In this document: in pieces, positions 141 through 17,754 of the stretch
Numbering within the stretch: the stretch's first letter is position 1
How the letters are laid out: each line of letters begins with the position of its first letter
Source of the DNA: Pseudanabaena sp. M085S1SP2A07QC
GTDB lineage: Bacteria > Cyanobacteriota > Cyanobacteriia > Pseudanabaenales > Pseudanabaenaceae
NCBI GenBank assembly: GCA_020404895.1
Contig: JADBWK010000022.1
Coordinates: 1-50,617, forward strand
Direction of reading: 5' to 3'
DNA: 50,617 nt
Position numbers and translations under genes: made by a program
The notes under the pieces: model-generated
Told to the model about the DNA's origin: nothing
Database searches by the model: none
The model's input: the letters and a program-made list of their open reading frames with translations, nothing else

Positions 141-2039
141 CAATCGGGCGAACTCCACAATGCCATGAAAGACATTCTTCCTGATGCCCTCTTTATCGGT
201 TTCACAGGCACACCCCTACTCAAAGCCGACAAACAAAAAAGCATCGAAGTCTTCGGGCGCTATATCCACACTTACAAATTTAACGAAGCCGTCAGCGATG
301 GCGTAGTCCTCGATCTCCGTTACGAAGCCCGCGACATCGACCAAATCATCACCTCCCAGCAAAAAATCGATCAATGGTTTGAAGCAAAAACGCAAGGATT
401 AAACGATTTGGCTAAGGCAAAACTTAAACAGCGCTGGGGAACCATGCAGTCAGTTCTCTCCAGTCAATCACGCCTAGAGCAAATCGTTGATGACATCCTC
501 ATGGATATGAGTACAAAGCCGCGCCTCATGGATGGACGCGGTAATGCCATGCTCGTTTGTAGCAGCATCTATCAAGCCTGTAAAACCTATGAGATTTTTT
601 CTAGAACCTCTCTCGCTGGTAAATGTGCGATCGTCACCAGCTACAAACCCTCACCCAGCGACCTCAAAGGCGAAACCACTGGTGAAGGCTACACCGAAAA
701 GCTGAACCAGTACGAAATTTACAAAAAAATGTTAGCGGATTGGTTTAACGAAGCCCCTGAAACAGCCATTAATAAAGCCGAACAATTTGAAATCGCCGTC
801 AAGAAAAAATTTATCGAAGAACCTGGGCAGATGAAGCTGTTGATCGTAGTCGATAAGCTACTCACAGGATTCGATGCCCCATCTGCAACTTATCTCTATA
901 TCGACAAGCAAATGCGAGATCATGGACTATTCCAAGCCATCTGTCGCGTCAATCGCCTCGATGGTGAAGACAAAGAATATGGCTATATTGTTGATTACAA
1001 AGATCTATTCAAAAGCCTCGAAGGAGCAGTTAGCGACTATACCTCTGGCGCACTTGATGGCTATGACCAAGCCGATGTGGCAGGACTCCTAGAAGATCGT
1101 CTCGAAAAAGCCACTGAAATACTCGACTCGATCCGCGAAGCGATCGCCGCTCTCTGCGAACCCGTCCCCAAGCCCAAAAATGAATCCGATTACTTCCATT
1201 ATTTTTGTGCAAAGGACTCAGGCAATACCGAAGAACTCAAAGCCAACGAACCCAAGCGCCTAGCCCTCTATAAACTCATCGCCTCGCTAATTCGCTCCTA
1301 TGCCAACATCGCCAACGAATTACCAAAAGCAGGCTACAGCCCTACCGAAATTGTCAAACTGAAGGATGAGGTTGATCGCTACACAAAGCTACGCGATGCC
1401 ATCAAACTCCATAGTGGTGACTACATCGACCTCAAAAGCTATGAGCCAGATATGCGCTACCTCATTGACAGGTATATCCGCGCTGAAGAAAGCGAGAAAA
1501 TATCGACCTTTGATGATTTTTCCCTAATTCAACTCATTGTTAATCGCGGAGTCAAAGCCGTTGACGAGCTACCGAAAGGCATCCGCAATAACCAAGAAGC
1601 CGTTGCCGAAACCATCGAAAATAACGTCCGCCGTTTAATAGTTGATGAGAAACCGATCAACCCCAAGTATTACGAAAAAATGTCTGAGCTGCTCGATGCT
1701 CTCATCAAACAAAGACGAGACAATGCGATTGATTATCAGGAATACTTAGCTCAAATCGCCGAACTTACTAAACAAGCTGCCAATCCACAGGGCAATCAAA
1801 ACTATCCCGCATCCCTAGACACATCAGCCAAGCGATCGCTATACGACAACCTCAATCAAAATGAGTCGCTTGCCCTAGCGATCGACAAAGCCATCAGAGA
1901 CAATCGCCAAGACGGTTGGCGCGGCAACAAAATCAAAGCTAAGAAGATAGAACTTGCGATCAAAGCATTGTTAAATGATGCAGATGAAGCTTGGATTAAC
2001 AGCATCTTAGAAATTGTGAGGGAGCAAAATGAATATTAG
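141..2039 (+). pseudogene. hsdR: type I restriction enzyme R subunit, N-terminally deleted
   Basis: This is the C-terminal 60% or so of an HsdR translocase/endonuclease. In-frame homology starts at base 141 with QSGELHNAMK, the stretch just after the DEAH box, and continues through the helicase motif FIGFTGTPL, the second RecA domain (LLIVVDKLLTGFDAPSATYL, then FQAICRVNRLDGEDKEYGYIVDY) and the helical C-terminus. A full HsdR is about 1000 residues. The nuclease domain and the Walker A and DEAH motifs are missing, because an IS end abuts base 140. Only an internal ATG at 165 could start translation, so a working enzyme is not expected. The 3' end overlaps the next gene by 11 bp, a normal spacing for a type I restriction operon. 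hsdM and hsdS are not in the window. Confidence 0.85.
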
Positions 2040-2860
2040 TCCTCATCAAATTTCTGTCAGTGGCATTGACATCGAAATCAACCGCAAGCCCATCAAAAAC
2101 CTCCACCTTGGAGTCTATCCCCCTCACGGAAAGGTGCGCGTCACTGCCCCGATGCACATTTGTGATGAGTCAATCCGCCTCGCAGCGATCGGGAAACTCG
2201 CATGGATCAAGCGCCAGCAGTCAAAATTTCAATCCCAGCCGCGTCAATCCCAACGAGAAATGGTAAGCGGCGAAAGTCATTATTTCTTAGGACAGCGCTA
2301 CCTCTTACAGGTTGTCGAACATCAAGGCAAGAACCACATAGCCCTAGAAAATAAATCGGTAATGCTTCTTTATGTCAAACCCACAACTATAGCAATGTAA
2401 GCTTTGCTTAGGACATAAAACCCAAAAGATGGCAGAGCGAAGCTCTGCCATCTTTTGGGTTTTGAATTGTCCTATCTATCTCTTACGTTGCTATAGCCAT
2501 GAAAAAAGGCTAGAAATCATCCAACAATGGTATCGCACTCAGCTAAAAGCGATTATCCCCGCACTAATCGATAAATGGAAGGCGATCGTTGGTGTAGAAA
2601 TCAATGAATGGGGAGTCAAACAAATGAAAACTAAATGGGGAAGTTGCAATATTGAGGATCATCGCATCTGGCTCAATCTCGAACTCATCAAAAAACCTTT
2701 ACACTGCATTGAGTACATCATCGTTCACGAATTAGTCCATCTCCTCGAAAGACACCATAGCGATCGCTTCAAAGCAGTCATGGATAAAGTAATGCCACAC
2801 TGGAGGATTTATCGCGACGAGTTAAATCAGTTACCTCTAGGTCACAATGACTGGAGTTAA
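2029..2860 (+). pseudogene. YgjP/SprT-like zinc metallopeptidase, split by a MITE
   Basis: Two reading frames (2029-2389 and 2496-2860) together make one YgjP-type (DUF45) protein. The first part carries the N-terminal beta domain. The second has WGSC and the HELVHLLERHH zinc site (HExxH plus a downstream His). They are separated by a 104-bp palindromic element with a duplicated TA. Removing the element plus one TA restores a continuous frame ...YVKPTT-SHEKRLEIIQQW... exactly, so the break is a recent insertion. YgjP-type genes often sit directly behind hsdR, as here, where the start codon overlaps the hsdR end. As it stands the first part stops at 2400, inside the element. Confidence 0.85.
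2390..2493 (+). mobile_element. MITE family A, copy 1 (104 bp, inside the YgjP gene)
   Basis: The element has 12-bp near-perfect terminal inverted repeats (TAGCAATGTAAG against TAGCAACGTAAG) and sits between duplicated TA dinucleotides at 2388-2389 and 2494-2495. The core is a long palindrome built on AAAAGATGGCAGAGC and its complement. Identically sized copies lie at 18920-19023 and 33240-33343, with a window-truncated copy at 50524. It encodes nothing. TA target duplication fits mobilisation by an IS630/Tc1-mariner-type transposase, but no such transposase is visible here. Confidence 0.9.
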
Positions 2861-3000: not shown

Positions 3001-6000
3001 TTAGCGTGTAATAACAACATAGGTTGCCTCCCTAATTCTATAAGTTTGATCCACTGACTTACTTATAAAGTCCATCCCTTTGTCAAATAAGATTCTAAAG
3101 TGTTGTCCATCTTGTTTTTGAATTTCTAATGAACGCGCATGGATAAAGCGATCGCCAGAACTTACACCTGATATATAGGCTTCTTGGACAACCTGACCTG
3201 AAATTATGGCTAATCGTTCTTCAATTTCCTCTAAACGGTCTGGTTTAGAAGGATCTTCAAGGATATTCACAATAAACTCAGTACCTGAGTCTAACCAATC
3301 TCCTTGCAATAGGCTAACTAGATATCTTGCTCCTGCAAAATTAAGATAGCGATCGCGATAAGTAACCTTTGCAACTGGGCTAACCATCAAAACTGTCTCT
3401 AGTCCTAGTCTTTGACGTAACTCTGCCAAGCTGACACTGCCCCAAGATGGATCTGGGAAGATAACCTGAGTATTTGGATCTTCTAATTCAATCGCTTTTA
3501 CTTCTCTAGCATTCAATATCAAATCATTTAGCTTTGCTTGAATAGTTTGGACACCTTCTTCACTGCGAGTTTGTAGCCATACCAGTTGATTCTCAGTTTC
3601 TTGATGTAATCCAAGGGCGATACGATTTTGGGGTGAGGTTTGGAAATAGAGGGTTGGCAACTTATCTACATCGGTTTGATAGAGATTGACCAATCCTTGA
3701 TCGATCCATTGTGATAGGCGCTTGCGTAAAACTAGATTTTGGTCAAGATTAGGTTGCGGCAGTTCATGCAAAATAATTGTTAAAGGCTCACATTTTTTGA
3801 CCATTTCGGTAATTTTCTTTAGCCAAGACATTGGCTCACCTCGATCTAGACAAAAGAGATCGCTTAGGCTCGGTAAGTAAATCATGCTGCCAGTTGTAGC
3901 CATCCCGCAGTGAGCGGTTAAATTATTAGCGACTATCTCTAACCGCACACGACTAGAACTAGGGGCAAAATTCTGTAATACTTCGTCAGGTTCCACAATT
4001 TCGATAATTGGACGTAGAAACCTGACAACCTCTTTTCGATCTAGTTCGTGGTGAAATATTTGATTAGAATAGGTTCTCAGGCAGTCATAACAACTACTTT
4101 CGCAGCTACAAGTATCAGTTAGCCTGTATGCCTCAATCAGAATATCTTTGAAGTTGTCAGAGATCCTTTGACTGTAACCCGCTCCACCAGGGACGTTGTC
4201 GTAGATGATAATTTCGGCTTGTCCATTGCCATTTTCTAAAGGTTTAAATAAACCATCAAGTTCTTCTCGGCGGACATCAATTACTTGAGCGGCGGCGGCA
4301 AGTAAGGCATAGGTAAGCGATCGCCAAAAATCAACTCGATTATTTGAAGTCTCAGCATCTGAGGCGATTACTCTATCTTCAACCGTATGCGTGACTGCAT
4401 CCGCCCCGAATAATGGTATAGGTTTGGTGGAGCGATCGAATCGAATTTTGAGAAAGTCAGTTTTAAACTCATGCCCTAAATGAATCAAATTCCAACGTCC
4501 TGAGCAAGTCTTGCCATTTAGGGGATGCAGATGCGTAGGTCTTGGAGGGGATGTGGTGACAGCCTTTTTACTACGAGCTAGTTTCTGCTTTTCTTCGTCC
4601 CATTTACGCACTTGTTCGCTTACATCTAATCCGCAACTCTCACAAGTATGAAATCCTTGCTTGGTAAAATTAAAATTTCTTTGTCCTTTATTTGCCAAGA
4701 AAAAAGTTCCATTTTGATTCACGGTAAGTTGGCAAATATTTTCTACAGATGAAGTTTTTTGAACTAATCCTGGATTAGCTAAGAAGACTTGTGATGTAAG
4801 TTGACGGATTGGTTTGAGATAAGGGGTAACTTTTGCTGTTGCTGCCCAATCGGTTACAAATGCTTTGGGAACTTTATATTCGTTAATTACTTTGTCAACT
4901 GCTGATGTTGGTCTGTGTTGACATACAGGACATTGATCAATCTCATTTTCTGGAGTCTTAAACTCAATAAAGTGATTGCAATTTTTACAAACCCAGTAGT
5001 ATTTTCTCTCTAGATTCCTTGGGCTATGAATACCCACACTGCTATAAACACGATCATCGACAACTACATCTTGACCAGGGGCGTATTCACCCAAGGCAAG
5101 ACGGCGATCGCGTTCTAGTCGATGTTTACCTTGTGATGATTTATATTCGTTGCTTTCGCCTGTGAGCAAGCGAACAACATCAATGGGAAATCCGTAGATA
5201 GGTAAGATACTCGCCTGAACTAATTCATCATGCAATTTACGCTTAGCGATTTTCTCTAACTCAAACTCAAGTCCATCTCGCCGCCGTTCTAATCCTTTAC
5301 GCTTTTTGCGATCGCTTTCAGCATCAATCTGTCTGTTCGTTTCTTCTAATGGAGATATGAGATCGTTCCAGTCTTGACATTGCTCTTGCTGAAACTCATC
5401 AATTTTTTGACAGAAATCATCTAATAAACTCCTAGCAGTTCCAGAAGCTTTTAAGCGCTCAATCCAGTCCTGAGCTAACTCGTTAGCTGGATCTGTATGC
5501 AACCATTCTTTTAAAGTACAAACCATTGCAGTTGCTGGTGGTGTAAATACATAGAAGGTTAGAGGTTGTGGTAGTTCTAAAAAGCTTTGAATATCAACTT
5601 TTTCAGCGCCTAGAGAATATATGCCCAAAAATGCAGCTAATAACTCAGCGCGAATATGTCGCTGTTGGATTTGCCAGTTGCCAGCATCTACTTTTGGAAT
5701 TTGATTAGAACCCGCGATTAGTTTATCGGGTTGCTCAAAATAAAAGCGATCGTGGGGGCGGCGCTGTCCATACATCAGCGTAATCGCTACGCCATCAGTA
5801 CGTCGTCCTGCTCGTCCTGCTCGTTGTTGATAGTTGCTCACATGGGGTGGGAAGTTACGGAGAACTACTGCTTGCAATTCACCGATATCTACACCCATTT
5901 CTAGGGTTGTCGAACAACTGAGCAGGTTAATCTGTCCCCGCCGAAATCCATTTTCCCGCTTTGCTAGTTCTTCTGTACCAAGTTGGGCAGTATGTTCTTG

Positions 6001-9000
6001 CGATCGCAATGCCAATGGAGCTTGATCTGGATTTTTTGTAATCAAATGTTGTTGATAATGTTCTTTTTTAGCAATATCAAGCTTCACTTTATCATAAGGT
6101 TCTAATTTACCTTCACACTTGAAAGCACGACAAGCATAGACATTTAAGCTATGGTTAGGAACTGTAGAATTAAGCTCATTCAAATTTGGGACATGAACAA
6201 CTTGCTGACAGAGATCGCACTGATGCCAGTTATCAGTTGTCTCAATAACATTGAGCAAATCCCACTTAAGTTGATAGCCATTTTTAGCTTTGACAAGTAG
6301 GCTTGAGCTTTCAAGTTGACGAAATAGAGCAACTAAATTTTCTTGACTTGGTGGTTCTTTAAACATTTGGGAATAAAACCAGCCTAAGCGATTTTGAACC
6401 TTACTAACTTCACCAGATTCCTTCAGTTTCGGTAAAAAAGATGGTGAGTCAGTGAAATATTTTTTTTCTTTGTCATCTTTTTTTAGAAAAAGATAGTTTT
6501 TGGATTTTCCAAGCTCTACCATGGGAGGACGAGCGCCATCAACGCCTCCCGTTTCTGGAAAGTAGCTTGAAGCGCCATCAATGCTGACAATCCCAGTACG
6601 CCGAATAATATCTGTGAGTCCAATCAGAAAGATATATGCTTCTGTATTAGTGATTTTGAATATATTAGCCACAGAATCAACTAAATGACTATCTGGAGAA
6701 AGTTGGATATGGCAAGCAAGAATAGCAAACGCCTCTAATGAATTTCGCCGAGCAAAGGGAATAGCAAATTCTCGTAGTAATAGCTCTTTTGCCCTTTTTT
6801 GGGCGTGATCGCTACAAGTTATGGCATTCTGAATTCCATCTATTGGATCGTCTGGACGATAGCTTTTATAGTTTTCCTTTGAATCTCGATCTGGGTGTGG
6901 GATAGAACGCTCTAAGAAAACCTGTTTTAGCTGTTCGGTAAGCCCCGTCATGTCGGCAATACCATCACAGTTTTTAACTGTTTTGAAAGCTTGGTAAACC
7001 GAATGACGGTAGAGCATCTCAGTATGAGTACGTTGATAGTCAGAAGCAAAGAAAGCTGCATCTTGACGACCATCTGAGAATGTCAAGAGTTTTCGTTTTG
7101 ATATGCTTTCATCCGATCGCGTAGGTTCGGGCAGTAAATCAAATAAGCTATCTACCATTGCCTCTAGAGGCGCATCTGTATAGGCAACAAAGCGGTTAAT
7201 GGCAAGCGATCGGTTTGGTCTAGCACCACAAGCTGCACATTTTGGTAAATAGCTCCCTTCGGCTTTTCTTTTAGCTTTTGCTTTATTCCAGTGCCACTGA
7301 AGCAGAAATTCCTTTTCTGATGTTGGAGTAGTTGTAGAATTTGTAGAGATCTCATTTTCAGAAGGAAAGCCTAACCAACCATGTTGATTTTTTAAGAATT
7401 TAAACGTACCTGATGATTGAGTATCATCTTCTCCATTTTCGTCATCCTCTTCATCTTCAGTTTTACCTCGTAAAGGATTGAGTGTCAGTGTATAAATTTT
7501 GGTATTATCTTTTAGCCCTTGATTGCTGCGTGGCAGAGGTTTTAGCTCTCCAGAATTACTATCCCATTGAGTAAAAGCATAATCTTGACCACACTGAGAG
7601 CAACTACCCAACTCCAAAACAGGTGATTGGCAATCATCGCAAATTTGCTTTTCGTTTAAATAGAGTTTGCGACAAGTTGGATTAATACAGCTATAAATTC
7701 CTTCTAGACTGCGGAATAACAAATGTAATCTCACAGGAAGTAAGGGCAGATCAGCAGTATTTTCACGCGCTAATGTGCCTAGTTGCAAAAGGTTAGCGAG
7801 AGCTTTTTTAGCTTTTTCCACAATATTTACGTCAAGGCTTCCATCTAATGAAGTAGGTAGATCGATATTCCATAGTTGTGCTGATTTGGCAATGTCATCC
7901 CAAGGTTGAGGGGCTTTTGTGAGAATATCGATTAAACGCTGGATAAGCGGATGCCCCTTAAGTGCAAACCAAAGTAAGCGATGGAAATCATTCTGTGCTT
8001 GAGATTTAGCGATCTCAAGGTGGTTTGTGGGTACGACTAAGAGCAGTCGATCGCGCCAGTCAGCGATCGCCTCAATTTCATGTAACTCCATTGTACTCAG
8101 GTATTCCAAAACGTCAGCATCACTGTGATCGGGAGCTAGATCGTAAGGAATTCCCAAACGCTCTAAAGCCGTAACGCGATTGCCACGAATGACTTGACTA
8201 AATGTTTCGCCAAACAGTTCACCAGCAAAAGTCTTCACCCGTTCATCGATCGCCGCTTCACCTAAACTGGCACTGGTGGCAATGCAACGAATATTGCCAT
8301 CAGGTATTGACATAGACGCTTTCAAACGTTTGAGAAGCATAGATACTTCTGACCCTGTAGATCCGTTGTAAGTATGCGCTTCATCGAGAACTAACATTTT
8401 AAATTTTGCACTCGAAGCCACAAATACCCGATTACGCTCAGTAGGACGAATCAACATATGCTCAAGCATTGAGTAGTTGGTAACAAGAATATGTGGCGGA
8501 CAGTCCCAAATATCTCTGCGAGAAATGGCTTGAATAGTTTGGATCTTCTTGACTGCTTCTTCAATCAATCGATCGCGAGTACTCAGATTTACCTTGTCAA
8601 AGCTTGTAAACAAATCTTGTAATTCTGAACTCTCATAAGTCTCTAGTTCCTTCCGCAATGATTCTTCTGCGTCTTCATGCTCAGTTTCAGTACGGCTAGT
8701 ATAGAAACCAAACTTAATCAATGGTTGCTGCGGATTTTGACGACAAAGTAACTGGCGTAAGCGTTTCACCTGATCGTTTACCAGAGCATTCATTGGGTAA
8801 AGTATTAACGCCCTAACTCCGCGATCGCGTAAATCATCTCCCTCCTTCAGCAACATATCCAACATGGGAATTAGAAAGCATTCTGTTTTGCCAGAACCAG
8901 TTCCCGTCGCTACGATGATATTTTCGCCATTATTGACTGCTTGAATCGCCTTTTGCTGATGCTCATAAAGACGGCGATCGCTTGGCACAGATAGCTCTGT

Positions 9001-9231
9001 CATCCGAGGATGCAAAATCGATTGTTCAACTAAATCTCTAACACTACCAGCAGATTGATAAGGTTGTGAACCCTCAAGATAAGGCTGTTGCCAGACGATT
9101 CCTGGTTGTCTGAGATTTTTTTCTAGCCTTTCGCGTAAATTGCGATCGCGCAGTGGATAAGCCGTGAGTAAGTAGCGAATAAAGTCTTCACGAGGGTTAG
9201 TAATTGCCTTAATGGGGTCGAGGTATTTCAT
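3001..9231 (-). CDS. DEAD/DEAH-box helicase with DUF1998 (MrfA/DruE/DISARM-like), 2076 aa
   Basis: A very large superfamily 2 helicase. The RecA1 domain has LYEHQQKAI (about 89-97), Walker A ATGTGSGKT (108-116), DEAH (283-286) and an S-A-T-like ATSAS. The RecA2 domain carries motif VI QQRAGRAGRR (near 1135-1145). Cys-rich zinc-binding clusters lie between and after them (for example CINPTC with CDDC and CSQC, CDLC, CKNC with CPVC, CESC). DUF1998 sits near 1700-1735 with the C-S-C, C-Y-D-C-L and LDR signature. The last 250 or so residues end in HAR...FDKGMDF, loosely like a PLD/MIT_C-type tail but without a canonical HxK. The start overlaps the upstream stop by ATGA, so it is translationally coupled to the 310-aa gene. 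Length and architecture match Druantia DruE or a DrmA-DrmB fusion. The partner genes are not ones I can assign, so the system type is open. Confidence 0.9.
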   Translation of the reverse strand: MKYLDPIKAITNPREDFIRYLLTAYPLRDRNLRERLEKNLRQPGIVWQQPYLEGSQPYQSAGSVRDLVEQSILHPRMTELSVPSDRRLYEHQQKAIQAVNNGENIIVATGTGSGKTECFLIPMLDMLLKEGDDLRDRGVRALILYPMNALVNDQVKRLRQLLCRQNPQQPLIKFGFYTSRTETEHEDAEESLRKELETYESSELQDLFTSFDKVNLSTRDRLIEEAVKKIQTIQAISRRDIWDCPPHILVTNYSMLEHMLIRPTERNRVFVASSAKFKMLVLDEAHTYNGSTGSEVSMLLKRLKASMSIPDGNIRCIATSASLGEAAIDERVKTFAGELFGETFSQVIRGNRVTALERLGIPYDLAPDHSDADVLEYLSTMELHEIEAIADWRDRLLLVVPTNHLEIAKSQAQNDFHRLLWFALKGHPLIQRLIDILTKAPQPWDDIAKSAQLWNIDLPTSLDGSLDVNIVEKAKKALANLLQLGTLARENTADLPLLPVRLHLLFRSLEGIYSCINPTCRKLYLNEKQICDDCQSPVLELGSCSQCGQDYAFTQWDSNSGELKPLPRSNQGLKDNTKIYTLTLNPLRGKTEDEEDDENGEDDTQSSGTFKFLKNQHGWLGFPSENEISTNSTTTPTSEKEFLLQWHWNKAKAKRKAEGSYLPKCAACGARPNRSLAINRFVAYTDAPLEAMVDSLFDLLPEPTRSDESISKRKLLTFSDGRQDAAFFASDYQRTHTEMLYRHSVYQAFKTVKNCDGIADMTGLTEQLKQVFLERSIPHPDRDSKENYKSYRPDDPIDGIQNAITCSDHAQKRAKELLLREFAIPFARRNSLEAFAILACHIQLSPDSHLVDSVANIFKITNTEAYIFLIGLTDIIRRTGIVSIDGASSYFPETGGVDGARPPMVELGKSKNYLFLKKDDKEKKYFTDSPSFLPKLKESGEVSKVQNRLGWFYSQMFKEPPSQENLVALFRQLESSSLLVKAKNGYQLKWDLLNVIETTDNWHQCDLCQQVVHVPNLNELNSTVPNHSLNVYACRAFKCEGKLEPYDKVKLDIAKKEHYQQHLITKNPDQAPLALRSQEHTAQLGTEELAKRENGFRRGQINLLSCSTTLEMGVDIGELQAVVLRNFPPHVSNYQQRAGRAGRRTDGVAITLMYGQRRPHDRFYFEQPDKLIAGSNQIPKVDAGNWQIQQRHIRAELLAAFLGIYSLGAEKVDIQSFLELPQPLTFYVFTPPATAMVCTLKEWLHTDPANELAQDWIERLKASGTARSLLDDFCQKIDEFQQEQCQDWNDLISPLEETNRQIDAESDRKKRKGLERRRDGLEFELEKIAKRKLHDELVQASILPIYGFPIDVVRLLTGESNEYKSSQGKHRLERDRRLALGEYAPGQDVVVDDRVYSSVGIHSPRNLERKYYWVCKNCNHFIEFKTPENEIDQCPVCQHRPTSAVDKVINEYKVPKAFVTDWAATAKVTPYLKPIRQLTSQVFLANPGLVQKTSSVENICQLTVNQNGTFFLANKGQRNFNFTKQGFHTCESCGLDVSEQVRKWDEEKQKLARSKKAVTTSPPRPTHLHPLNGKTCSGRWNLIHLGHEFKTDFLKIRFDRSTKPIPLFGADAVTHTVEDRVIASDAETSNNRVDFWRSLTYALLAAAAQVIDVRREELDGLFKPLENGNGQAEIIIYDNVPGGAGYSQRISDNFKDILIEAYRLTDTCSCESSCYDCLRTYSNQIFHHELDRKEVVRFLRPIIEIVEPDEVLQNFAPSSSRVRLEIVANNLTAHCGMATTGSMIYLPSLSDLFCLDRGEPMSWLKKITEMVKKCEPLTIILHELPQPNLDQNLVLRKRLSQWIDQGLVNLYQTDVDKLPTLYFQTSPQNRIALGLHQETENQLVWLQTRSEEGVQTIQAKLNDLILNAREVKAIELEDPNTQVIFPDPSWGSVSLAELRQRLGLETVLMVSPVAKVTYRDRYLNFAGARYLVSLLQGDWLDSGTEFIVNILEDPSKPDRLEEIEERLAIISGQVVQEAYISGVSSGDRFIHARSLEIQKQDGQHFRILFDKGMDFISKSVDQTYRIREATYVVITR

Positions 9232-10160
9232 ACGAGTTCACATCCTAATTTATTAAAAGCTTTCTTCATGAGTGGGCGTTTGAGTGGCTCAAAGTATCGA
9301 GTTCGATACATATCATCAACTGGTTCTGAAATTCGCCACAACCATCGCGCATAGTCACTGGGGAGATTTATTCCTTGCAAATTCAATCTGCCCTGCGGTT
9401 CATCCCAAATAATTTTGAGATTTGCATTTGCTTCTATATCCAAAGCAAACATCGCGAGGATAGCTACATCTGGCTCGATTTCATAAAATTCTGTGCCATC
9501 CATCCAGATATATTCTCCTGTTGGCAACTGTATTAATGGTGATAAGTTTTGAGTCAAGATTTGGGCATAGTTGGCAGGTTGCCATCGCGCTGTTTGTTGT
9601 GACAAATTGGGACGAGGTATATATTGCTGAATATTTTGATCTGTTCTCCAATTGTCATTTTCAAAAGGATTGCGAGTCAAAGGCGATCGCAAAAACACTT
9701 GATCGGGCTTTTGAGGAATTGGTAAGTTTGCCAAGCTATCTGCAACAGTCCATAGCCTCACACCAATTTGTTCTACATGAGATCTAATCCATGAAAGACT
9801 CTGTTTTTTAGGGCGAACTCGTAAATTATCAAGATCTGTTGGGTCGCTCTCAAGAGTTTGATGAACTAAAGCTAAATAAGTGCGATCGCCTGTAAATAGC
9901 AAACTTGTTAAGTTGTCTTTATCAAGTGCTATTAGCGTGGGAGGCGCTATACAGTATTGATTGCGATCGCCTGCCAAGATTTCACCCATTGCTTCTAGTT
10001 CATTTAAATCTTGCCTAAGAGTCTCAGTATTTAGATTGCGATCGGGTGCGATCTTTGATTTAAGCAAAGAGATAATTTGGCTGAGCGTTAAAGCTAAAGG
10101 CAGCGACGAATTTGTAGACTGTCGATGCTGACTAAGTAGCAGAATAATTGTGTTTTTCAT
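9228..10160 (-). CDS. unknown 310-aa protein, middle gene of the helicase operon
   Basis: I do not recognise a family. The N-terminal 75 residues or so (SQIISLLKSKIAPDRNLNTE, then LRQDLNELEAMGEIL) look like a winged helix-turn-helix, with the polar recognition-helix spacing of two-helix DNA-binding domains. The rest is mixed alpha/beta, with no transmembrane segment and no obvious catalytic motif. It begins 2 nt after the stop of the large upstream gene and ends in a 4-bp ATGA overlap with the helicase. The three genes must therefore be co-transcribed and are probably made in fixed ratio. A DNA- or complex-binding adaptor for the helicase is plausible, but this is inferred from context only. 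Confidence 0.8.
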   Translation of the reverse strand: MKNTIILLLSQHRQSTNSSLPLALTLSQIISLLKSKIAPDRNLNTETLRQDLNELEAMGEILAGDRNQYCIAPPTLIALDKDNLTSLLFTGDRTYLALVHQTLESDPTDLDNLRVRPKKQSLSWIRSHVEQIGVRLWTVADSLANLPIPQKPDQVFLRSPLTRNPFENDNWRTDQNIQQYIPRPNLSQQTARWQPANYAQILTQNLSPLIQLPTGEYIWMDGTEFYEIEPDVAILAMFALDIEANANLKIIWDEPQGRLNLQGINLPSDYARWLWRISEPVDDMYRTRYFEPLKRPLMKKAFNKLGCELV

Positions 10161-10162
10161 TT

Positions 10163-13135
10163 CTATTTACGTCCCAACATTTTATTAACTTGAGCCATAG
10201 ATGGCGGCTTACGTTCAATTTTTTTAAAGCAATCAACCTGTCGCAAATATTCGTATCCCTTTTGGTAATCACTCAATCGCACAAGGAGATAATCGCTATA
10301 AATCTCTCCATCTGGGACTCCAATTTCCGTGATCAAATCGCTTAATTCTTCTCGTTCTCGAATAATCTGAAGATATTTTTGAAATGTTTTTCTTCCTTTT
10401 AGCTTAGTTTCAACCAAGTACCATACTCCAGGTTGTTTATCAGTAAATAGAGCAATTGGTTGAGGTGGAGTTCTTGGAGGGAGTTTTGTGTGAGAAAGTA
10501 AATGGGGTGTAACAATTTCACTAGACTGGATTCTAGTCTTTGGTTTTAATGTTTGGCTATCCAGAAATACCTCTAATTTATCTAGTAGAGATTCTCTATT
10601 TAACCAATCAGGCAAATAATAGGATCGAGACTGCAAGCTGGAAATCATCACTCGAATTTTTTGCAGATCAATTCCAATTATTTTGATTGCTGCCATAAAT
10701 TTTTCGATGGGTTCACAGTCAAGAATTGTATAGCAATAATTTTCTAGTTCCTCATCTGTCTCAGCTATTTGAGGTAATGTGGGCTTATCATCACCGCACC
10801 AACATCCTAAATCTTGAAGCGATCGCCCTTGGATCTGAATGTGATAAATTCCAGTACTTAAATGTAAAGGAACAGCGATCGTGTCTTGCTCTAGATTTTG
10901 TACTCTAATCCTTTCAGGCTCATGATGAGGTGTTAAAAGATTCCAACAAATTAATGAATAATTTTGATTTGATTGAAATCCTGAAAGATAAATAGCTTGA
11001 CTATCCCAAGTGTAACTGATCGGCTGACTCGAAACTAACTCAACTAATCTTTGCGTTTCCATTCCTGAACGCTGAAAATCCAGAGCATACCAATCTGAAT
11101 CAGATAGTTTTCCATGTAGAGTTGCTAGACTAATCATGACAGTCCCAGACTTGTCGGCATAAACAACATAAGAAATTTTGCTTTCTCCATTACATAGGGT
11201 AAGCGTGACTTTTTCGAGAGTCCACAGTCCTCGTATAGTGATAGTTTGCGCCCAAAATTGTTCTAAGCGATCGCATTGAATCGGTAGATTTTCAACGATA
11301 TCTCCTTGCCCGTTAAAAACCTGTAAATCAGCAAAACTAGATACTTCAAACATCAAATGCAGAGATTTTAGCTCAAAGCTATATGAATATCGTAGATTCT
11401 CATTCCAAAAACGAACTAAATACTTGCCTGAAGTTGAAATCATCTGTTGCAGTGAAATATTCTGCCAGCGATCGCTGGTCAAAATCTCCACCGATGTTCT
11501 AGCAGTTATTTCCTGACTAGTAAGATTTTCAACTGAAATATTAAATGATAGATTTTGAGATGTGGGGGGATGCCACAAGGTTGGTGCTTCTAGGTAAATT
11601 TCTTTTTTTCCTTTGATCATTAGTCCACGCAACACTGGCTGCTTGTTCTCAGAAATTTGCCACTTAACTATTACTGGAGGATATTGCCCAGATCGAATGA
11701 GAATGACTTCAGAACTATTAGTGAGTAGTTGAATGTGCTGACCACACCAACCAGAAATGCTGCATGGAACGTAGCTACTCAATATATCTATCTCATTATT
11801 TAGTTTCAGTTTGACATCCTTAGGAATGAAACAAATTATTTCATTGGTTTTAGAAATAACTGGATTAGCATTATCTAGAGAAATATGCGTACCTATATTG
11901 GCATCAAATATCAGGCAGGGTAAAGCGTCTGCGATTCCTTCTTGAGTCCAAGTAACTAATTCACGATTGTTATGATCTAATAAATGCAACCTCCATTGAG
12001 TCTCTATATTTCTGATGTTTATAATTTGCTCAGGAATACTTAAAAATTCTGAATTAGAACATGGGATATTTCCTTGCCAGATAGATCCTGAAATAAAATC
12101 GGGAATATGACAATAACTACCAAGTAAAGCTGACCATGTTGGCTCTCGCAGATTTTGTTCTGGTAACACCAGTTGAATATTCCCTGTATCAAAAACATCC
12201 AAAAGCATTGACAATGGTTTCTTGCGGGGTTTAATAGTTCTAAGATAAGAATTACTAGGAGTCTGTGTATGAGTGAGAACTTGGATGAGATTGTCCCAGT
12301 CTCTCAAAAAGAAATGCTTAGGCAAATAATAATTACTAAGCCTACTTTCTCTTTGATTCGCATCCCTTAGAATGTCTGGACTTTCATTATTTCGTTCAAG
12401 TTCAAGCGCAACAGAGGCAATACCCTGAACCAATTGCCCCGAAATTGGTTCTACTTTCTCAATGTCAGAACAGCTAACTCTTAGAAATCCAATTAATATA
12501 CCCCACTGAGGATGTCTCTCCTGACAAAAATCTAGCAATTCTTGAGATAGAAGTTTTTCTGAGGTGTGAGCTAATTCCCACCATCCGTAATCACTAGCAA
12601 TATTTTGGACAAGTTGAGCAAAGTGGTGCAGATTTCTTTGAGGTATTCCGCTTTGTAGCCATAAAGTTGCAACATGAGCAATACCCGCTTTACGCTTAGC
12701 TTTAACTAATTTCAACAGGTTGCTACCTTGCCTAGAAATTTCCCGAAGTGTATTAGCCACACCTTGACTGTAGGGAATTCTAATAAATTGACAATTACAA
12801 AATCCTTCCCAAAAGCCTTGCTCTGAACTCGAGTAATAGTAAGCATATTCAGAAAGAGCAGCCGTAATAATTTTGACCCAGTTTTGGCGATGATCAAAGC
12901 TCTCACGTAATGATGAATAGGTTATATTGCCTTCTTGCCTTAGGTGCGATCGCAGATTTTCACCAACAATTCTTAAAAGCTGATTTGAAGTATCTCTCTC
13001 TATGACCAAACTTCCCAAAAATCTTCTGCCTTCTGGAAATTGTGCCTGTCTCCATCCGCGCAAAATAATTTCCTCCCATAAAGTGTGTGTATCTTTAGAA
13101 CTTGTAAAATCGAAATCCATATTACCCCCAGACAT
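10163..13135 (-). CDS. unknown ~990-aa protein, first gene of the helicase operon
   Basis: No family recognised. The protein is soluble. The N-terminal third is helical and Trp/Leu-rich. The middle is beta-rich (many short alternating segments, roughly 400-750), as in stacked beta-sandwich modules. The C-terminus has a compact block, GVWYLVETKLKGRKTFQKYL then DYLLVRLSDYQKGYEYL. I prefer the ATG at 13135 because AAAGGA lies just upstream. The frame is open further to a TTG at 13198 (1011 aa) without a ribosome site, and another ATG at 13120 is preceded by GGGGG. It is the largest companion of the helicase and the gene nearest the WYL-controlled promoter. By analogy with other large-helicase defence systems it could be a sensor or scaffold, which is conjecture. 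Confidence 0.85.
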   Translation of the reverse strand: MSGGNMDFDFTSSKDTHTLWEEIILRGWRQAQFPEGRRFLGSLVIERDTSNQLLRIVGENLRSHLRQEGNITYSSLRESFDHRQNWVKIITAALSEYAYYYSSSEQGFWEGFCNCQFIRIPYSQGVANTLREISRQGSNLLKLVKAKRKAGIAHVATLWLQSGIPQRNLHHFAQLVQNIASDYGWWELAHTSEKLLSQELLDFCQERHPQWGILIGFLRVSCSDIEKVEPISGQLVQGIASVALELERNNESPDILRDANQRESRLSNYYLPKHFFLRDWDNLIQVLTHTQTPSNSYLRTIKPRKKPLSMLLDVFDTGNIQLVLPEQNLREPTWSALLGSYCHIPDFISGSIWQGNIPCSNSEFLSIPEQIINIRNIETQWRLHLLDHNNRELVTWTQEGIADALPCLIFDANIGTHISLDNANPVISKTNEIICFIPKDVKLKLNNEIDILSSYVPCSISGWCGQHIQLLTNSSEVILIRSGQYPPVIVKWQISENKQPVLRGLMIKGKKEIYLEAPTLWHPPTSQNLSFNISVENLTSQEITARTSVEILTSDRWQNISLQQMISTSGKYLVRFWNENLRYSYSFELKSLHLMFEVSSFADLQVFNGQGDIVENLPIQCDRLEQFWAQTITIRGLWTLEKVTLTLCNGESKISYVVYADKSGTVMISLATLHGKLSDSDWYALDFQRSGMETQRLVELVSSQPISYTWDSQAIYLSGFQSNQNYSLICWNLLTPHHEPERIRVQNLEQDTIAVPLHLSTGIYHIQIQGRSLQDLGCWCGDDKPTLPQIAETDEELENYCYTILDCEPIEKFMAAIKIIGIDLQKIRVMISSLQSRSYYLPDWLNRESLLDKLEVFLDSQTLKPKTRIQSSEIVTPHLLSHTKLPPRTPPQPIALFTDKQPGVWYLVETKLKGRKTFQKYLQIIREREELSDLITEIGVPDGEIYSDYLLVRLSDYQKGYEYLRQVDCFKKIERKPPSMAQVNKMLGRK

Positions 13136-13198
13136 TTTCCTTTGGTTATATTTATGTTGGCGATTAACAAAGTAATCTGCATCTCTAAATACTAACAA

Positions 13199-13334
13199 AA
13201 AAAACTTTAATATTCCACAAAAAGAAAATATGATACATACCTAAATCAACAATCACGAAATCATTTTATTTAAAAGGCTTTTTAGCCCTAAAATTAGTCT
13301 AGCTGTAATATTTTCTTTTACTTGACATCACAAC
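13199..13334. promoter_or_regulatory. divergent promoter region with a 12-bp inverted repeat
   Basis: This AT-rich spacer separates the helicase operon from the WYL regulator gene. AAAAGAAAATAT (13220-13231) and its exact complement ATATTTTCTTTT (13308-13319) face each other, one near each gene start. WYL regulators commonly bind inverted repeats in such divergent spacers, so these are candidate operators. The low complexity of the sequence makes a chance match possible. Confidence 0.4.
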
Positions 13335-14540
13335 ATGCTCAAAAAAGACACTAACTTTCCCTATAGTGATCGCCAAGCATTTGATCGATTAATTTTGCTG
13401 ATCGCTACTCTGATCCACAATCCAGGAGTGGGATATTCTGCCCCAGATTCATTTGAATCTAAGAAAAATGAACATCATAATGCGATTAAAGAGGTGCAAA
13501 CAAAACTTTGGGAAACAGCAAAATCGCACCACATCTCTTTACCTGAAGGTTATCCAGCATTACCAACTATCCGTAAGGATCTGGAATATTTAAGACAACG
13601 CGGTATCTTAGATAAACGAATGTATCGCTGGGGCTATTATGTTGGCACAGGAGTCATGAGCTTAGATGAACTCCAATCAGTTCTAAATGCGCTATCTTCC
13701 CAAGCCAAATATCAAGGAGATGCTCAATCTAGAAGAATTTACGAAACTCTAACCAAAAGATTAAAGGGCATAGACTTAGAAAATCAAGGTAAATTTCTTT
13801 ATCCAATTAGACAAATACTTAATCGTTCAGTTGGTCATACAGATCCAGAAGAAATGATTAGACTGGATGAGAACCAGAACAACCTGTTCCACAAAATAGA
13901 TACCGTGGAAGACGCAATCATGAAAGGGCAAGCCATTGAGATACATCGCAGTAACGATTCCTATGGTACTGGCCGAATTGGCTACTTGCAAATTTTTCCA
14001 TTGCAATTAATTTATTACGATATCGCTTGGTATATCATCTATGAATACTGCGACAATAATCACTTGGCAATTAGAAGAGTTAATCGATTTACAAATTATT
14101 GTAAAATTTTAATCGGTAAAACCCGCACTATAGATGAACAACACAAGCGACTTCAAGATGCTCATAAATTGCGTGAAAACGGATGGGGATTATATTTAGG
14201 GTCAGTTGAAGAGCAGCAACAAGAATTAGCAGGCAATTCTATATTTGAAACGGTGAAGGTAAGATTTTTCCCACCTGCAACGGATTTTATTTTGGAAGGA
14301 GATCGCCGCCATGCTAAGCACAAAATTATTAAAGGATATAAAGATAAGGAAATAGGTCAGCCAACTTATGTCGATTATATTATCAAGCTACCAGAAAGAT
14401 CTTTTAAAGAATTTAGTCTTTGGGTATTTCGTCATATGAACTACGCTCAGGTTATGGCTCCCAGTAAGTTAGTTCAAGTCCACACGGATGCTGCACAGAA
14501 ATTATTTGAGAGATATCAGAAAAATTCTTGCTGTAAATAA
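13335..14540 (+). CDS. WYL-domain transcriptional regulator
   Basis: A 401-aa protein. The N-terminus has a helix-turn-helix with its recognition segment near 77-105 (PTIRKDLEYLRQRGI). The WYL domain begins about residue 210, with the core FPLQLIYYDIAWYIIYEY and the R-R-V-N-R-F end expected of the family. A WCX-like C-terminal extension follows. WYL proteins bind DNA and sense a ligand, and several (BrxR, CapW and DISARM-linked ones) control phage-defence operons. It is divergent to the three-gene helicase operon with 136-200 bp between starts, so it most likely represses that operon and itself. Its stop codon lies inside the left arm of the inverted repeat at 14531. Confidence 0.9.
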   Translation: MLKKDTNFPYSDRQAFDRLILLIATLIHNPGVGYSAPDSFESKKNEHHNAIKEVQTKLWETAKSHHISLPEGYPALPTIRKDLEYLRQRGILDKRMYRWGYYVGTGVMSLDELQSVLNALSSQAKYQGDAQSRRIYETLTKRLKGIDLENQGKFLYPIRQILNRSVGHTDPEEMIRLDENQNNLFHKIDTVEDAIMKGQAIEIHRSNDSYGTGRIGYLQIFPLQLIYYDIAWYIIYEYCDNNHLAIRRVNRFTNYCKILIGKTRTIDEQHKRLQDAHKLRENGWGLYLGSVEEQQQELAGNSIFETVKVRFFPPATDFILEGDRRHAKHKIIKGYKDKEIGQPTYVDYIIKLPERSFKEFSLWVFRHMNYAQVMAPSKLVQVHTDAAQKLFERYQKNSCCK

Positions 14541-14941: not shown

Positions 14942-15883
14942 CTATTCCAACTTCTCCGACGCTTTCAAAAAAGCTCGTTTCGCAGCAATCTTATTTTTAC
15001 GATTGGTATAACGCCTAAAACTCCTGACATCACGATGTCTAGTCAACTCCATCGCCAAAGAAGGATCTAACTCATACTTCACAATCAAATTTGTCGCAAA
15101 CGTATGTCTACCCCGATGCGAATGCAAATCAATTCCCGTCTTCTCCGCCAAATCATCCATCACATGCCGAATCCCCCAATAAGTCAACCGCTTACCCTGA
15201 CTGCGATTAGAGCAAGACACAAACAAAGCACTATCAGTCAATAACTCCCCTTCTTGCGCTTCCCTCCAATCCAAATAAGCATCCAAATCCTGAATACCCA
15301 ACTTAGTTAATGGCACTTCTCCCTTACTATCCCATTTCGCCTCCTTAATCACCAATTCCCCATTTACATAATCCTCAACATTCAGACGACAGACCTCCTC
15401 CGCCCTCAAGCCATGCAACAACACTGAAAACAACGCCCGATCGCGCAACACCACCTTACCTAACGAAATCGCCTCATAAATTCGCAACACCTCCTCATCC
15501 TCCAAATCCTTAGCCACAGGATCGGGCAACCGCTCCTGCTGAATGCCAAGCGTCGGATCGGCAACCACATATTCCGAGAGCAACATCCACCGATAAAACG
15601 ATTTCAGAGTCCGCAGCACCCGATTCACCGAACTCAGTGCCAACTCACGCTCCTTCAGCAAAAAAGTTTTAAACTGCGTCACTTTGCGCCGACTCACATC
15701 CACCCAAGCCAGATCGCACCAATCCATAAATGTCCGTAAATCTGCCTGATATGCCTTACGACTTTTGGGTTGTAAAGACCTTGACGCTAAAAACTCATCA
15801 ACCCTTGCTTGGCGCAAGTCTGAAGTGACGATCGCTTTGGGCGGTTCGCCGTAAACAACTAAAATTGTCTCTGGAATCGACAT
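14942..15883 (-). CDS. tyrosine recombinase/integrase (XerC/D type)
   Basis: The core-binding domain (about 25-115) is followed by the catalytic domain. The catalytic residues are present: Arg in LLHGLRAEEVCRL (about 158), Lys in AKWDSKGEVPL, the H-x-x-R box in LHSHRGRHTFATN (about 255), the second His in ELTRHRDVRSF and the nucleophile Tyr in RRYTN (about 292). I chose the ATG at 15883 because the decayed copy at 17767 aligns from the same Met (MSIPE). An in-frame ATG at 15934 would add 17 residues. The enzyme could move or invert DNA by strand exchange. It stands between the helicase cassette and the ATPase-nuclease gene, and its own decayed sister lies beyond that gene in opposite orientation. 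Confidence 0.92.
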   Translation of the reverse strand: MSIPETILVVYGEPPKAIVTSDLRQARVDEFLASRSLQPKSRKAYQADLRTFMDWCDLAWVDVSRRKVTQFKTFLLKERELALSSVNRVLRTLKSFYRWMLLSEYVVADPTLGIQQERLPDPVAKDLEDEEVLRIYEAISLGKVVLRDRALFSVLLHGLRAEEVCRLNVEDYVNGELVIKEAKWDSKGEVPLTKLGIQDLDAYLDWREAQEGELLTDSALFVSCSNRSQGKRLTYWGIRHVMDDLAEKTGIDLHSHRGRHTFATNLIVKYELDPSLAMELTRHRDVRSFRRYTNRKNKIAAKRAFLKASEKLE

Positions 15884-16029
15884 AGCAGCATCACGTGAAT
15901 TAACAATTAACTTCCTATCGACATCACCGCGCATACAAAGTGAGATCGCCCGCCATTAGCAACCCCTATCTCCAAGTAGTGCTAGACGACTCAAAAAATG
16001 AGCATTTTCAAGATCGAAAGCCCAATTAG

Positions 16030-16197: not shown

Positions 16198-17754
16198 ATG
16201 CAAAAATGGTTTAATACTGCTGGTCCTTGTAAGGCTGACATTCACTACATGTTGCCAGCAAGCGAGCGTTTGCCTGAGCTAGAGAAGTTGATCGCTCAGG
16301 AGAATTACTTTGTAATTCATGCGCCACGGCAGACGGGTAAAACAACAGCAATGATCAACCTTGCAAAAGAATTGACTGAGAGTGGTCAATATGTTGCAGT
16401 GATGTTATCGGTTGAAGTAGGTGCAGCATTTCCCCATAATCCCCAATTAGCACAGAATAGTATTTTAAATAGTTGGTGGAATCAGGTACGTTTCTTGCAG
16501 TTGCCATTACCGAATCCCTCACAAATTCAACAGGAAACAGGTGTTAGTCAACTTGACTTACAAACGGTCTTACAAGCTTGGTCAATGGCATCAGCTTTGC
16601 CTCTAATTATTTTTGTAGATGAAATTGATGCTTTGAGTGACGAAACTTTAATTTCGGTGCTAAGACAGTTTCGTTCTGGTTATCCTAATCGTCCTAAGGG
16701 ATTTCCTCAGTCACTTGCCTTGATTGGGATGAGAGATGTGAGGGATTATAAATATGCATCAGGAGGTAGCGATCGCCTGCAATCTTCTAGTCCATTTAAT
16801 ATCAAAGTTCAATCTTTTACTTTGAGTAACTTTACTTTGGAGGATGTTAATAGGCTTTATAAGCAACATACAGAAGCCACAGGACAAATATTTACGCCCG
16901 AAGCAGTTGATTTAGCTTTTCATTTGACACAGGGTCAGCCTTGGTTGGTGAATGCGATCGCTAAGGAAATTGTTGAATATATTGCTAAAGATCCAGCTAT
17001 TGAGATAAATGTTGATTTAATAGAGCAAGCTAAGGAGATTTTAATTAAGAGGCAAGATACACATTTAGATAGCTTAGCTGAAAGATTAAGAGAAGATAGG
17101 GTGAGGATAATTGTTGAACCAATTTTGTCAGGTCAAGAGTTAGTTAATACTCCAGAAGATGATTTGAGATATGTTTTAGATTTAGGATTATGCAATCGGG
17201 ATAGCAGAGGTGGTATTCAAATTGCTAATCCAATTTATCGAGAAGTTATTCCTAAAGTACTATCATCTATTACGATCGCGTCTTTAACTTCAATAGCACC
17301 AACATGGCTAGATCAGGATGGTAATCTCAATGCTCAAGCACTGCTAGATTCGTTTATCATGTTCTGGCGGCAGCATGGAGAACCATTATTTGGAAGTACA
17401 CCCTATCCAGAGATTGCACCCCACATAGTATTGATGGCATTTTTGCATCGGGTGGTTAATGGTGGTGGCACATTGGAAAGGGAATATGCCATTGGTTCGG
17501 GGCGAATGGATATTTGTTTGCGCTATGGCACAGTGATTTTGGCAATAGAGTTGAAGGTATGGCGCGATAAGAATCCTGATCCGATTAAGGAAGGATTACA
17601 GCAGTTGGATAAATATTTATCGGGATTGAGTTTGGATACAGGTTGGTTGGTGATCTTCGATCGCCGTTCTGGTTTGCCGCCGCTAAGCGATCGCACGACT
17701 ACTGAGAATGTTATTAGTCCAGCAGGTCGAGAAATCATTGTAATTCGAGGCTAA
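16198..17754 (+). CDS. AAA-like ATPase fused to a PD-(D/E)XK nuclease domain
   Basis: 518 aa. An N-terminal STAND/AAA-like ATPase (COG1672-type) has Walker A APRQTGKTT (42-50) and Walker B LIIFVDEID (about 135-143). Its winged-helix part runs to about 330. The C-terminus is a PD-(D/E)XK-type fold: ERE, then GSGRMDICL (the metal Asp) and AIELKVW (the E-x-K), about residues 425-456. Such proteins are frequent in cyanobacterial islands. The combination suggests ATP-gated DNA cleavage, in defence or as a selfish function. The gene is flanked on the left by an intact tyrosine recombinase on the opposite strand and on the right, 12 bp after its stop, by a decayed recombinase copy. Confidence 0.85.
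   Translation: MQKWFNTAGPCKADIHYMLPASERLPELEKLIAQENYFVIHAPRQTGKTTAMINLAKELTESGQYVAVMLSVEVGAAFPHNPQLAQNSILNSWWNQVRFLQLPLPNPSQIQQETGVSQLDLQTVLQAWSMASALPLIIFVDEIDALSDETLISVLRQFRSGYPNRPKGFPQSLALIGMRDVRDYKYASGGSDRLQSSSPFNIKVQSFTLSNFTLEDVNRLYKQHTEATGQIFTPEAVDLAFHLTQGQPWLVNAIAKEIVEYIAKDPAIEINVDLIEQAKEILIKRQDTHLDSLAERLREDRVRIIVEPILSGQELVNTPEDDLRYVLDLGLCNRDSRGGIQIANPIYREVIPKVLSSITIASLTSIAPTWLDQDGNLNAQALLDSFIMFWRQHGEPLFGSTPYPEIAPHIVLMAFLHRVVNGGGTLEREYAIGSGRMDICLRYGTVILAIELKVWRDKNPDPIKEGLQQLDKYLSGLSLDTGWLVIFDRRSGLPPLSDRTTTENVISPAGREIIVIRG

What the first reader, a model, noticed from the sequence alone, without database searches (positions are those of the whole stretch)
3001..14540. WYL-controlled three-gene helicase cassette, candidate undescribed anti-phage system
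Three tightly coupled minus-strand genes (about 990 aa unknown, 310 aa winged-helix-like unknown, 2076 aa DEAD/DEAH-DUF1998 helicase) face a divergent WYL regulator. Spacing is 2 nt and a 4-bp overlap. Large helicases of this architecture are core to Druantia (DruE) and to DISARM (DrmA/DrmB). WYL regulators control several defence operons. The locus sits between a broken type I restriction gene and a tyrosine recombinase. I cannot match the two partner proteins to any named system.
Basis: partly seen in the sequence, partly recalled or inferred. Interest (0 to 1): 0.85.

Follow-up and report, generated by a model that had tools for sequence, protein, structure and literature searches.

The report
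Divergent Druantia-type cassette in cyanobacteria
The three genes are a real, conserved operon that looks like a previously unnamed relative of the Druantia bacterial antivirus systems: a DNA-shredding helicase with two partner proteins that standard tools do not recognise, one of which swaps its end domains between strains as a virus-recognition part might.

Summary
Three coupled minus-strand genes (985-1011, 310 and 2076 aa; 2-nt gap, 4-bp overlap) face a divergent WYL gene. The same order recurs in six other cyanobacterial loci, including plasmids; the 310-aa gene occurs only in this cassette or its remnants.

The helicase is a DruE, so the cassette belongs to the Druantia branch of YprA-family defence systems. 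Its DruE forms a separate clade (100/100), equal in rank to type III and to types I/II/IV, yet carries the PLD-nuclease tail typical of type III.

The partners have no direct Pfam, NCBIfam or PADLOC match. Profile comparisons link the N-terminus of the large protein to DruH, the type III sensor, including residues essential in E. coli. They link the C-terminus of the 310-aa protein, which starts with a predicted winged helix, to DruD of type I. The large protein ends in a NusG-NGN-like domain, and both of its ends have been exchanged between close alleles.

Best reading: a new Druantia subtype that joins type III and type I/IV features, a variant of a known kind. Defence activity is untested. 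Whether the preprint's "Druantia III-like" branch already contains it could not be checked.

The parts
3001..9231 (-). DruE-like YprA-family helicase, 2076 aa. Walker A at residues 110-116, DEAH at 283, motif VI at 1136, MZB zinc module 1639-1718. C-terminal PLD-like tail: YRDRYL at 1958, HxR at 2031-2033, FDKGM.
9228..10160 (-). 310-aa partner: N-terminal winged-helix-like fold (only part modelled above pLDDT 50), C-terminal region similar to DruD
10163..13120 (-). 985-aa partner (1011 aa if the TTG at 13198 is used): DruH-like N-terminal domain, central region, NusG-NGN-like C-terminal domain (about residues 920-1010 of P0003)
10163..10740 (-). exchanged C-terminal segment of the large partner (window allele unlike L001 and L043, which agree with each other)
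12120..13120 (-). N-terminal segment of the large partner (L043 allele unlike window and L001); holds the DruH-like motif at residues 130-186 of P0003
13121..13334 (.). divergent intergenic region between the large partner and the WYL gene, the expected site of regulation; no convincing operator repeat found
13335..14540 (+). WYL-type transcriptional regulator, 401 aa, divergent

Best explanation
This is a chromosomal copy of a distinct, so far unnamed Druantia-branch anti-phage system. Shown by computation: the helicase is a DruE with intact ATPase motifs and a type III-like PLD nuclease tail; the three genes are a conserved, co-inherited unit; the large partner has a DruH-like N-terminal domain and a NusG-NGN-like C-terminal domain; the small partner has a predicted winged helix and a DruD-like C-terminus. 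Inferred: the large protein is the infection sensor, since its DruH-like surface is conserved and its two ends are swapped between alleles. The 310-aa protein is a DNA-binding adaptor that helps DruE engage duplex or forked DNA, since the duplex-entry residues of E. coli DruE are not conserved here whereas the ssDNA-channel and ATP residues are. DruE then loads on 3' single-stranded parts of phage replication intermediates, unwinds them and cuts with the PLD tail. The WYL protein, where present, holds the operon down until it senses a nucleic-acid or stress signal.
For: DruE profile hits of 766, 691 and 520 bits. Conserved gene order in window, L001, L032, L043, L044, L045 and L118. The five plasmids with the 310-aa gene are the same five with the large gene and the only five with DruE above 55% identity; the next DruE is at 28%. 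Cassette DruE clade 100/100, III 100/100, I+II+IV 97/97. PLD tail shared with type III. DruH link: PADLOC DruH E 7e-4 for the L034 homolog over its residues 101-164; profile-profile score 28.1 against 200 column shuffles of 13.2 +/- 2.4, maximum 20.6; a DruH is the best non-family hit and DruHs are four of the five best, among 250 other ORFs. The aligned residues include W88, T131/L132 and G137, in groups whose mutation abolishes defence in E. coli DruH (PMC13192584). DruD link: score 27.9 against shuffles 14.3 +/- 2.5, maximum 24.1, and DruD of L063 is the best hit among about 340 ORFs not pre-selected by this profile. NGN link: 38.6 against 11.6 +/- 2.0, best decoy 24.9. End swapping. dN/dS 0.13-0.29. 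Residue conservation.
Against: No phage experiment exists for any member. The DruH and DruD links cover about 60-110 columns and are weak in absolute terms (hhalign probability about 2-16%); the full-length comparison with E. coli DruH alone fails, and one of the two DruD proteins shows no link. AlphaFold models are too poor to compare folds (pLDDT 36 and 30), so the Ig-like domains and nuclease activity of DruH are not shown for the large protein. The WYL gene is not always present. Several copies are decayed, so the system is often lost.
Confidence: 0.72

Rival explanations
1. It is simply a divergent Druantia type III (or the preprint's 'Druantia III-like/III-B' branch), with the 310-aa gene an optional add-on.
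For: Shared PLD tail and DruH-like N-terminus. One tree joins cassette and III with SH-aLRT 83. [quoted passage not shown]
Against: The careful tree leaves cassette, III and I/II/IV unresolved with long separate stems. Seven typical type III loci and the Chryseobacterium III-like locus have no gene between DruH and DruE. All seven intact cassettes have the 310-aa gene.
Confidence: 0.2
2. It is a DNA-repair or plasmid-maintenance helicase operon, not defence.
For: YprA-family helicases such as MrfA act in repair (PMC12458937), and several copies lie on plasmids.
Against: The helicase matches defence-branch DruE models far better than repair models and carries the type III nuclease tail. The cassette is rare: four of 386 genomes keep any trace of the large gene's body and 7 of 26 genus genomes have a hit to the 310-aa gene, some of them fragments. 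End swapping is unlike a housekeeping repair gene.
Confidence: 0.06
3. A genuinely separate defence system that shares only the DruE helicase with Druantia, its two partners being unrelated to DruH and DruD.
For: No partner of the window matches any PADLOC, Pfam or NCBIfam model above threshold; the DruE clade stands apart.
Against: Profile comparisons beat shuffles and unrelated ORFs for both partners.
Confidence: 0.12

Closest known systems
Druantia type III (DruH + DruE; E. coli, PMC13192584)
   Same: DruE with tandem C-terminal PLD-like region (YxDRYL, HxR); the gene before it has a DruH-like N-terminal domain; tightly coupled genes (DruH and DruE overlap by 1 nt in L046)
   Different: Extra 310-aa gene between them; the large partner ends in an NGN-like domain instead of the DruH C-terminal helical region; DruE forms its own clade; PADLOC does not recognise the partner
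Druantia type I (DruA-B-C-D-E; e.g. L060, L063)
   Same: A roughly 260-360-aa gene (DruD) directly before DruE; the C-terminus of the 310-aa protein resembles DruD of L063
   Different: No DruA; the other partners show no link; type I DruE is reported to end in an inactive Vsr-type domain, not PLD (PMC12458937)
Druantia type IV as defined in PADLOC (DruF4-DruL4-DruE4; L048, L050, L051)
   Same: Cyanobacterial plasmids; large gene, then a 300-360-aa gene, then DruE; DruL shares an APP motif and an end-to-end co-linear but weak alignment with the 310-aa protein
   Different: DruF is unrelated to the large protein by profile; DruE4 lies in the I/II/IV clade
ARMADA, BRIGADE, TALON, DISARM, Dpd (other YprA-family systems)
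   Same: YprA-family helicase with MZB module
   Different: No PglX-like methyltransferase, BrxHII-like helicase, deazaguanine genes or split DrmA/DrmB here; ARMADA helicases fall outside the Druantia clade

Membership tests
Druantia (any type) | DruE helicase of the Druantia clade | tested here: met
   PADLOC DruE 766 bits; tree places it with types I-IV against ARMADA, 100/100
Druantia type III | DruH recognised by profile | tested here: not met
   No PADLOC DruH hit for the window protein; one homolog hits at E 7e-4
Druantia type III | DruH-like N-terminal domain by profile-profile comparison | tested here: met
   Score 28.1 vs shuffle maximum 20.6; DruH best non-family hit among decoys
Druantia type III | DruE nested in the type III clade | tested here: not met
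   Separate clade, 100/100 for both
Druantia type III | C-terminal PLD-like tail on DruE | tested here: met
   YxDRYL and HxR in all six cassette members aligned
Druantia type III | two-gene operon DruH-DruE | tested here: not met
   Three genes in all seven intact loci
Druantia type I | DruA, DruB, DruC, DruD | tested here: not met
   No DruA/B/C; only a weak DruD-like C-terminus
Druantia type IV (PADLOC) | DruE4, DruF4, DruL4 | tested here: not met
   DruE outside the IV clade; no profile link to DruF4; DruL link weak
Druantia (any type) | protection against phages | not testable with these tools
   needs plating assays
ARMADA | PglX-like methyltransferase and BrxHII-like helicase partners | tested here: not met
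   Partners have no such domains
DISARM | separate DrmA and DrmB plus methyltransferase | tested here: not met
   Helicase and MZB are in one protein; no methyltransferase in the cassette
Druantia III-like / III-B branch of PMC12458937 | helicase falls in that branch | not tested

The most novel reading that the evidence does not exclude
A fifth type of Druantia, parallel to type III and to I/II/IV, in which a DruH-like sensor carries an exchangeable NusG-NGN-like domain that may watch transcription complexes, and a DruD-like winged-helix adaptor couples it to a DruE helicase-nuclease. It would show the composition from which today's Druantia types could have been assembled.
Probability: 0.45. 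Interest if true: 0.72.

Novelty: new variant of a known kind. Interest (0 to 1): 0.58.

Why it matters
Profile-based defence finders would report an orphan DruE here and miss the system. The cassette combines parts typical of separate Druantia types (type III nuclease tail and DruH-like domain, type I DruD-like adaptor), which bears on how these systems are related. The exchange of both ends of the large protein between close alleles points to the part that recognises the phage and makes that testable by swapping ends. An NGN-like domain on a defence sensor would suggest a link to transcription.

Tried and rejected
Sequence searches of both partners against Pfam, NCBIfam and PADLOC: nothing. 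Viral contigs with both partner alignments and the phage collection with the large partner: no relative. AlphaFold with the only two sequences allowed: models unusable (pLDDT 36 and 30), so no fold search was run; only the N-terminal 70 residues of the 310-aa protein (three helices and a hairpin) are worth mention. Elevated protein divergence as positive selection: rejected, because dN/dS is 0.23-0.29 and the divergence is due to exchanged ends with high dS. Operator palindrome for WYL: none convincing. The 110-aa N-terminal extension of the 310-aa homolog in L118/L119 as a relocated NGN domain: rejected. DruL as a firm relative of the 310-aa protein: only suggestive, because real decoys score as high. 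Large partner against DruB, DruC, DruF and the 955-aa type I protein: no link. Tyrosine recombinase as the cassette's own integrase: rejected, because it is a multi-copy pair in the genus.

Full report
WHAT IS THERE. The window is a 50.6-kb contig of a cyanobacterial genome (G000, contig 106) close to Pseudanabaena: the best matches are the Pseudanabaena sp. ABRG5-3 plasmid and same-genus genomes. Gaps are 2 nt and a 4-bp overlap. The homologs in L001 and L043 keep exactly this 2-nt and 4-bp spacing, and the others differ by a few bases.

WHAT THE HELICASE IS. P0001 matches PADLOC DruE with 766 bits (type I model), 691 bits (type III model) and about 500 bits (types II and IV). DpdJ, BrxH and DrmA models score below 100 bits. 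Pfam gives DEAD, Helicase_C and MZB, the former DUF1998. The nearest solved structure is the DruE of E. coli Druantia III (9tu7, E 1e-82). Sequence after the MZB module aligns with the type III PLD-like tail: all six cassette helicases aligned have YxDRYL and HxR followed by FDxGM, like seven of eight type III proteins, the eighth being truncated. PMC12458937 reports two PLD-like domains for type III and inactive Vsr-like domains for types I and II. In a careful tree of the helicase core, the six cassette proteins form one clade (100/100). Type III (100/100) and types I/II/IV (97/97) form the two others, and the order among the three is not resolved (a quick tree joins cassette and III at 83). 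The ATP-pocket residues of E. coli DruE (K121, R165, D251, E252, R1135, R1139) and most of the single-strand channel residues (N156, R207, N221, R231, R647, R1372) are conserved; several duplex-entry residues (K812, R886, K890) are not (residues from PMC13192584).

CONSERVED UNIT. The same order (large protein, 310-aa protein, DruE) is intact in L001 (MAG), L032 (G280), L043 (Pseudanabaena ABRG5-3 plasmid; the same locus as G408), L044 (Fremyella/Tolypothrix plasmid, large gene split), L045 (Nostoc linckia plasmid) and L118 (G395), besides the window. In the plasmid collection the five records with the 310-aa gene are the same five with the large gene and the only five with DruE above 55% identity; the next DruE is at 28%. 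Among 386 cyanobacterial genomes the 310-aa gene was found only beside the large gene. Decayed copies occur in G187, G334 and G390. The WYL gene is divergent and adjacent in window, L043 (92%) and L045 (50%), absent in L032 and L044, and beyond the contig end in L001. In G386 an 88% identical WYL protein faces an unrelated 1369-aa gene. The regulator is thus a shared, exchangeable part.

THE LARGE PARTNER. No library profile matches it in the window. Three results tie its N-terminus to DruH. First, the G334 homolog hits PADLOC DruH at E 7e-4, residues 101-164 against 90-155. Second, its family profile against eight DruH proteins scores 28.1, against 13.2 +/- 2.4 (maximum 20.6) for 200 column shuffles. 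Third, a DruH is the top non-family hit and DruHs are four of the five best against 250 other ORFs. The aligned motif is W...TLWLQSGIP in the cassette and W...TLACEGGLP in E. coli DruH. W88, T131/L132 and G136/G137 of DruH are among the substitutions that abolish Druantia III defence (PMC13192584). The last ~90 residues are related to stand-alone ~104-aa proteins in Nostocaceae. Together they match the NGN domain of NusG end to end: score 38.6, hhalign probability 85%, shuffles 11.6 +/- 2.0, best real decoy 24.9. The central part resembles nothing detected; the Ig-like domains known in DruH were not shown here.

EXCHANGED ENDS. Between window, L001 and L043 the DNA of the cassette is mostly 80-99% identical except at the two ends of the large gene. 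In the first kilobase window and L001 agree (about 90%) and L043 differs (62-75%). In the last 0.6 kb L001 and L043 agree (85-90%) and the window differs (49-65%). All genes are under purifying selection, so this is exchange of segments by recombination, not fast point mutation. L118 lacks the C-terminal third of the large protein altogether. Exchangeable ends are what one expects of a recognition subunit; this step is inference.

THE 310-AA PARTNER. Its first 70 residues are modelled as three helices and a hairpin (winged-helix-like; moderate confidence). Its C-terminal 80 residues match DruD of the Pseudomonas putida type I locus (L063). The score is 27.9 against shuffles 14.3 +/- 2.5, and that DruD is the top hit among about 340 ORFs not pre-selected by this profile; a second DruD (L060) shows no link. 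DruL of type IV aligns over 217 columns with a shared APP motif but is no better than the best decoys. Like DruD and DruL it is the gene immediately before druE.

HOW IT PROBABLY WORKS. By analogy with Druantia III (PMC13192584), the large protein would sense infection, the 310-aa protein would bind duplex or forked DNA and link sensor and helicase, and DruE would load on 3' single strands of phage replication intermediates, unwind them and cut with the PLD tail. The helicase and tail are shown by conservation; the roles of both partners and of WYL control are inferred. WYL regulators beside defence loci are documented (PMC9122601, PMC9122588; titles and abstracts seen).

VERDICT. The cassette is real, conserved and most likely a defence system, but not one without relatives: it is a new branch of Druantia that joins features of separate types. 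Main uncertainty: PMC12458937 mentions an unresolved 'Druantia III-like' branch, and its tables were not available, so the helicase may already be listed there without its partners described. Weak points are the remote links of the two partners and the absence of any experiment.

Noticed in passing
window 14942-15934 and 16198-17754: Tyrosine recombinase and neighbouring AAA-ATPase gene (weak hits to AAA_35 and a PD-(D/E)XK nuclease domain) occur as a multi-copy pair in nearly all genomes of the genus (roughly 71-97% DNA identity, often tail to tail), including further copies in this genome; they look like an unnamed mobile or repeated unit.
   Followed up: partly
L009, L010, L016-L019, L022, L024-L026, L036:6831-7145, L037:6582-6896: Stand-alone ~104-aa NGN-only (NusG-like, no KOW) proteins in Nostocaceae; in the two loci read in full each lies just downstream of a ~396-aa gene, an M20 peptidase in the one that was scanned.
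   Followed up: partly
window 2029-2860: YgjP-like metallopeptidase split into two ORFs (model positions 3-83 and 95-206), probably a frameshift, beside the truncated HsdR.
   Followed up: no
window 165-2039: HsdR lacks its first ~400 residues; in-frame stop just upstream near the contig start.
   Followed up: partly
L121:8667-14209: The same WYL regulator (88%) divergent to an unrelated 1369-aa gene with a weak match to a MADS component; possibly another defence gene under the same regulator.
   Followed up: partly
L043:20239-28037: A second YprA-type helicase (1896 aa) overlapping a GajB/UvrD-like protein lies directly downstream and tail to tail with the cassette on the Pseudanabaena plasmid, in a dense cluster of helicase genes.
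   Followed up: no
L118:5849-15466: Cassette variant in G395: large protein shortened to 693 aa (lacks the C-terminal third), 310-aa homolog with an unrelated ~110-aa N-terminal extension, DruE intact.
   Followed up: yes
L035:8271-11423 and L044:9029-11596: Homologs of the large protein with long N-terminal extensions (a predicted coiled coil in L035), annotated 'chromosome segregation ATPase-like' in L044 and L045.
   Followed up: no
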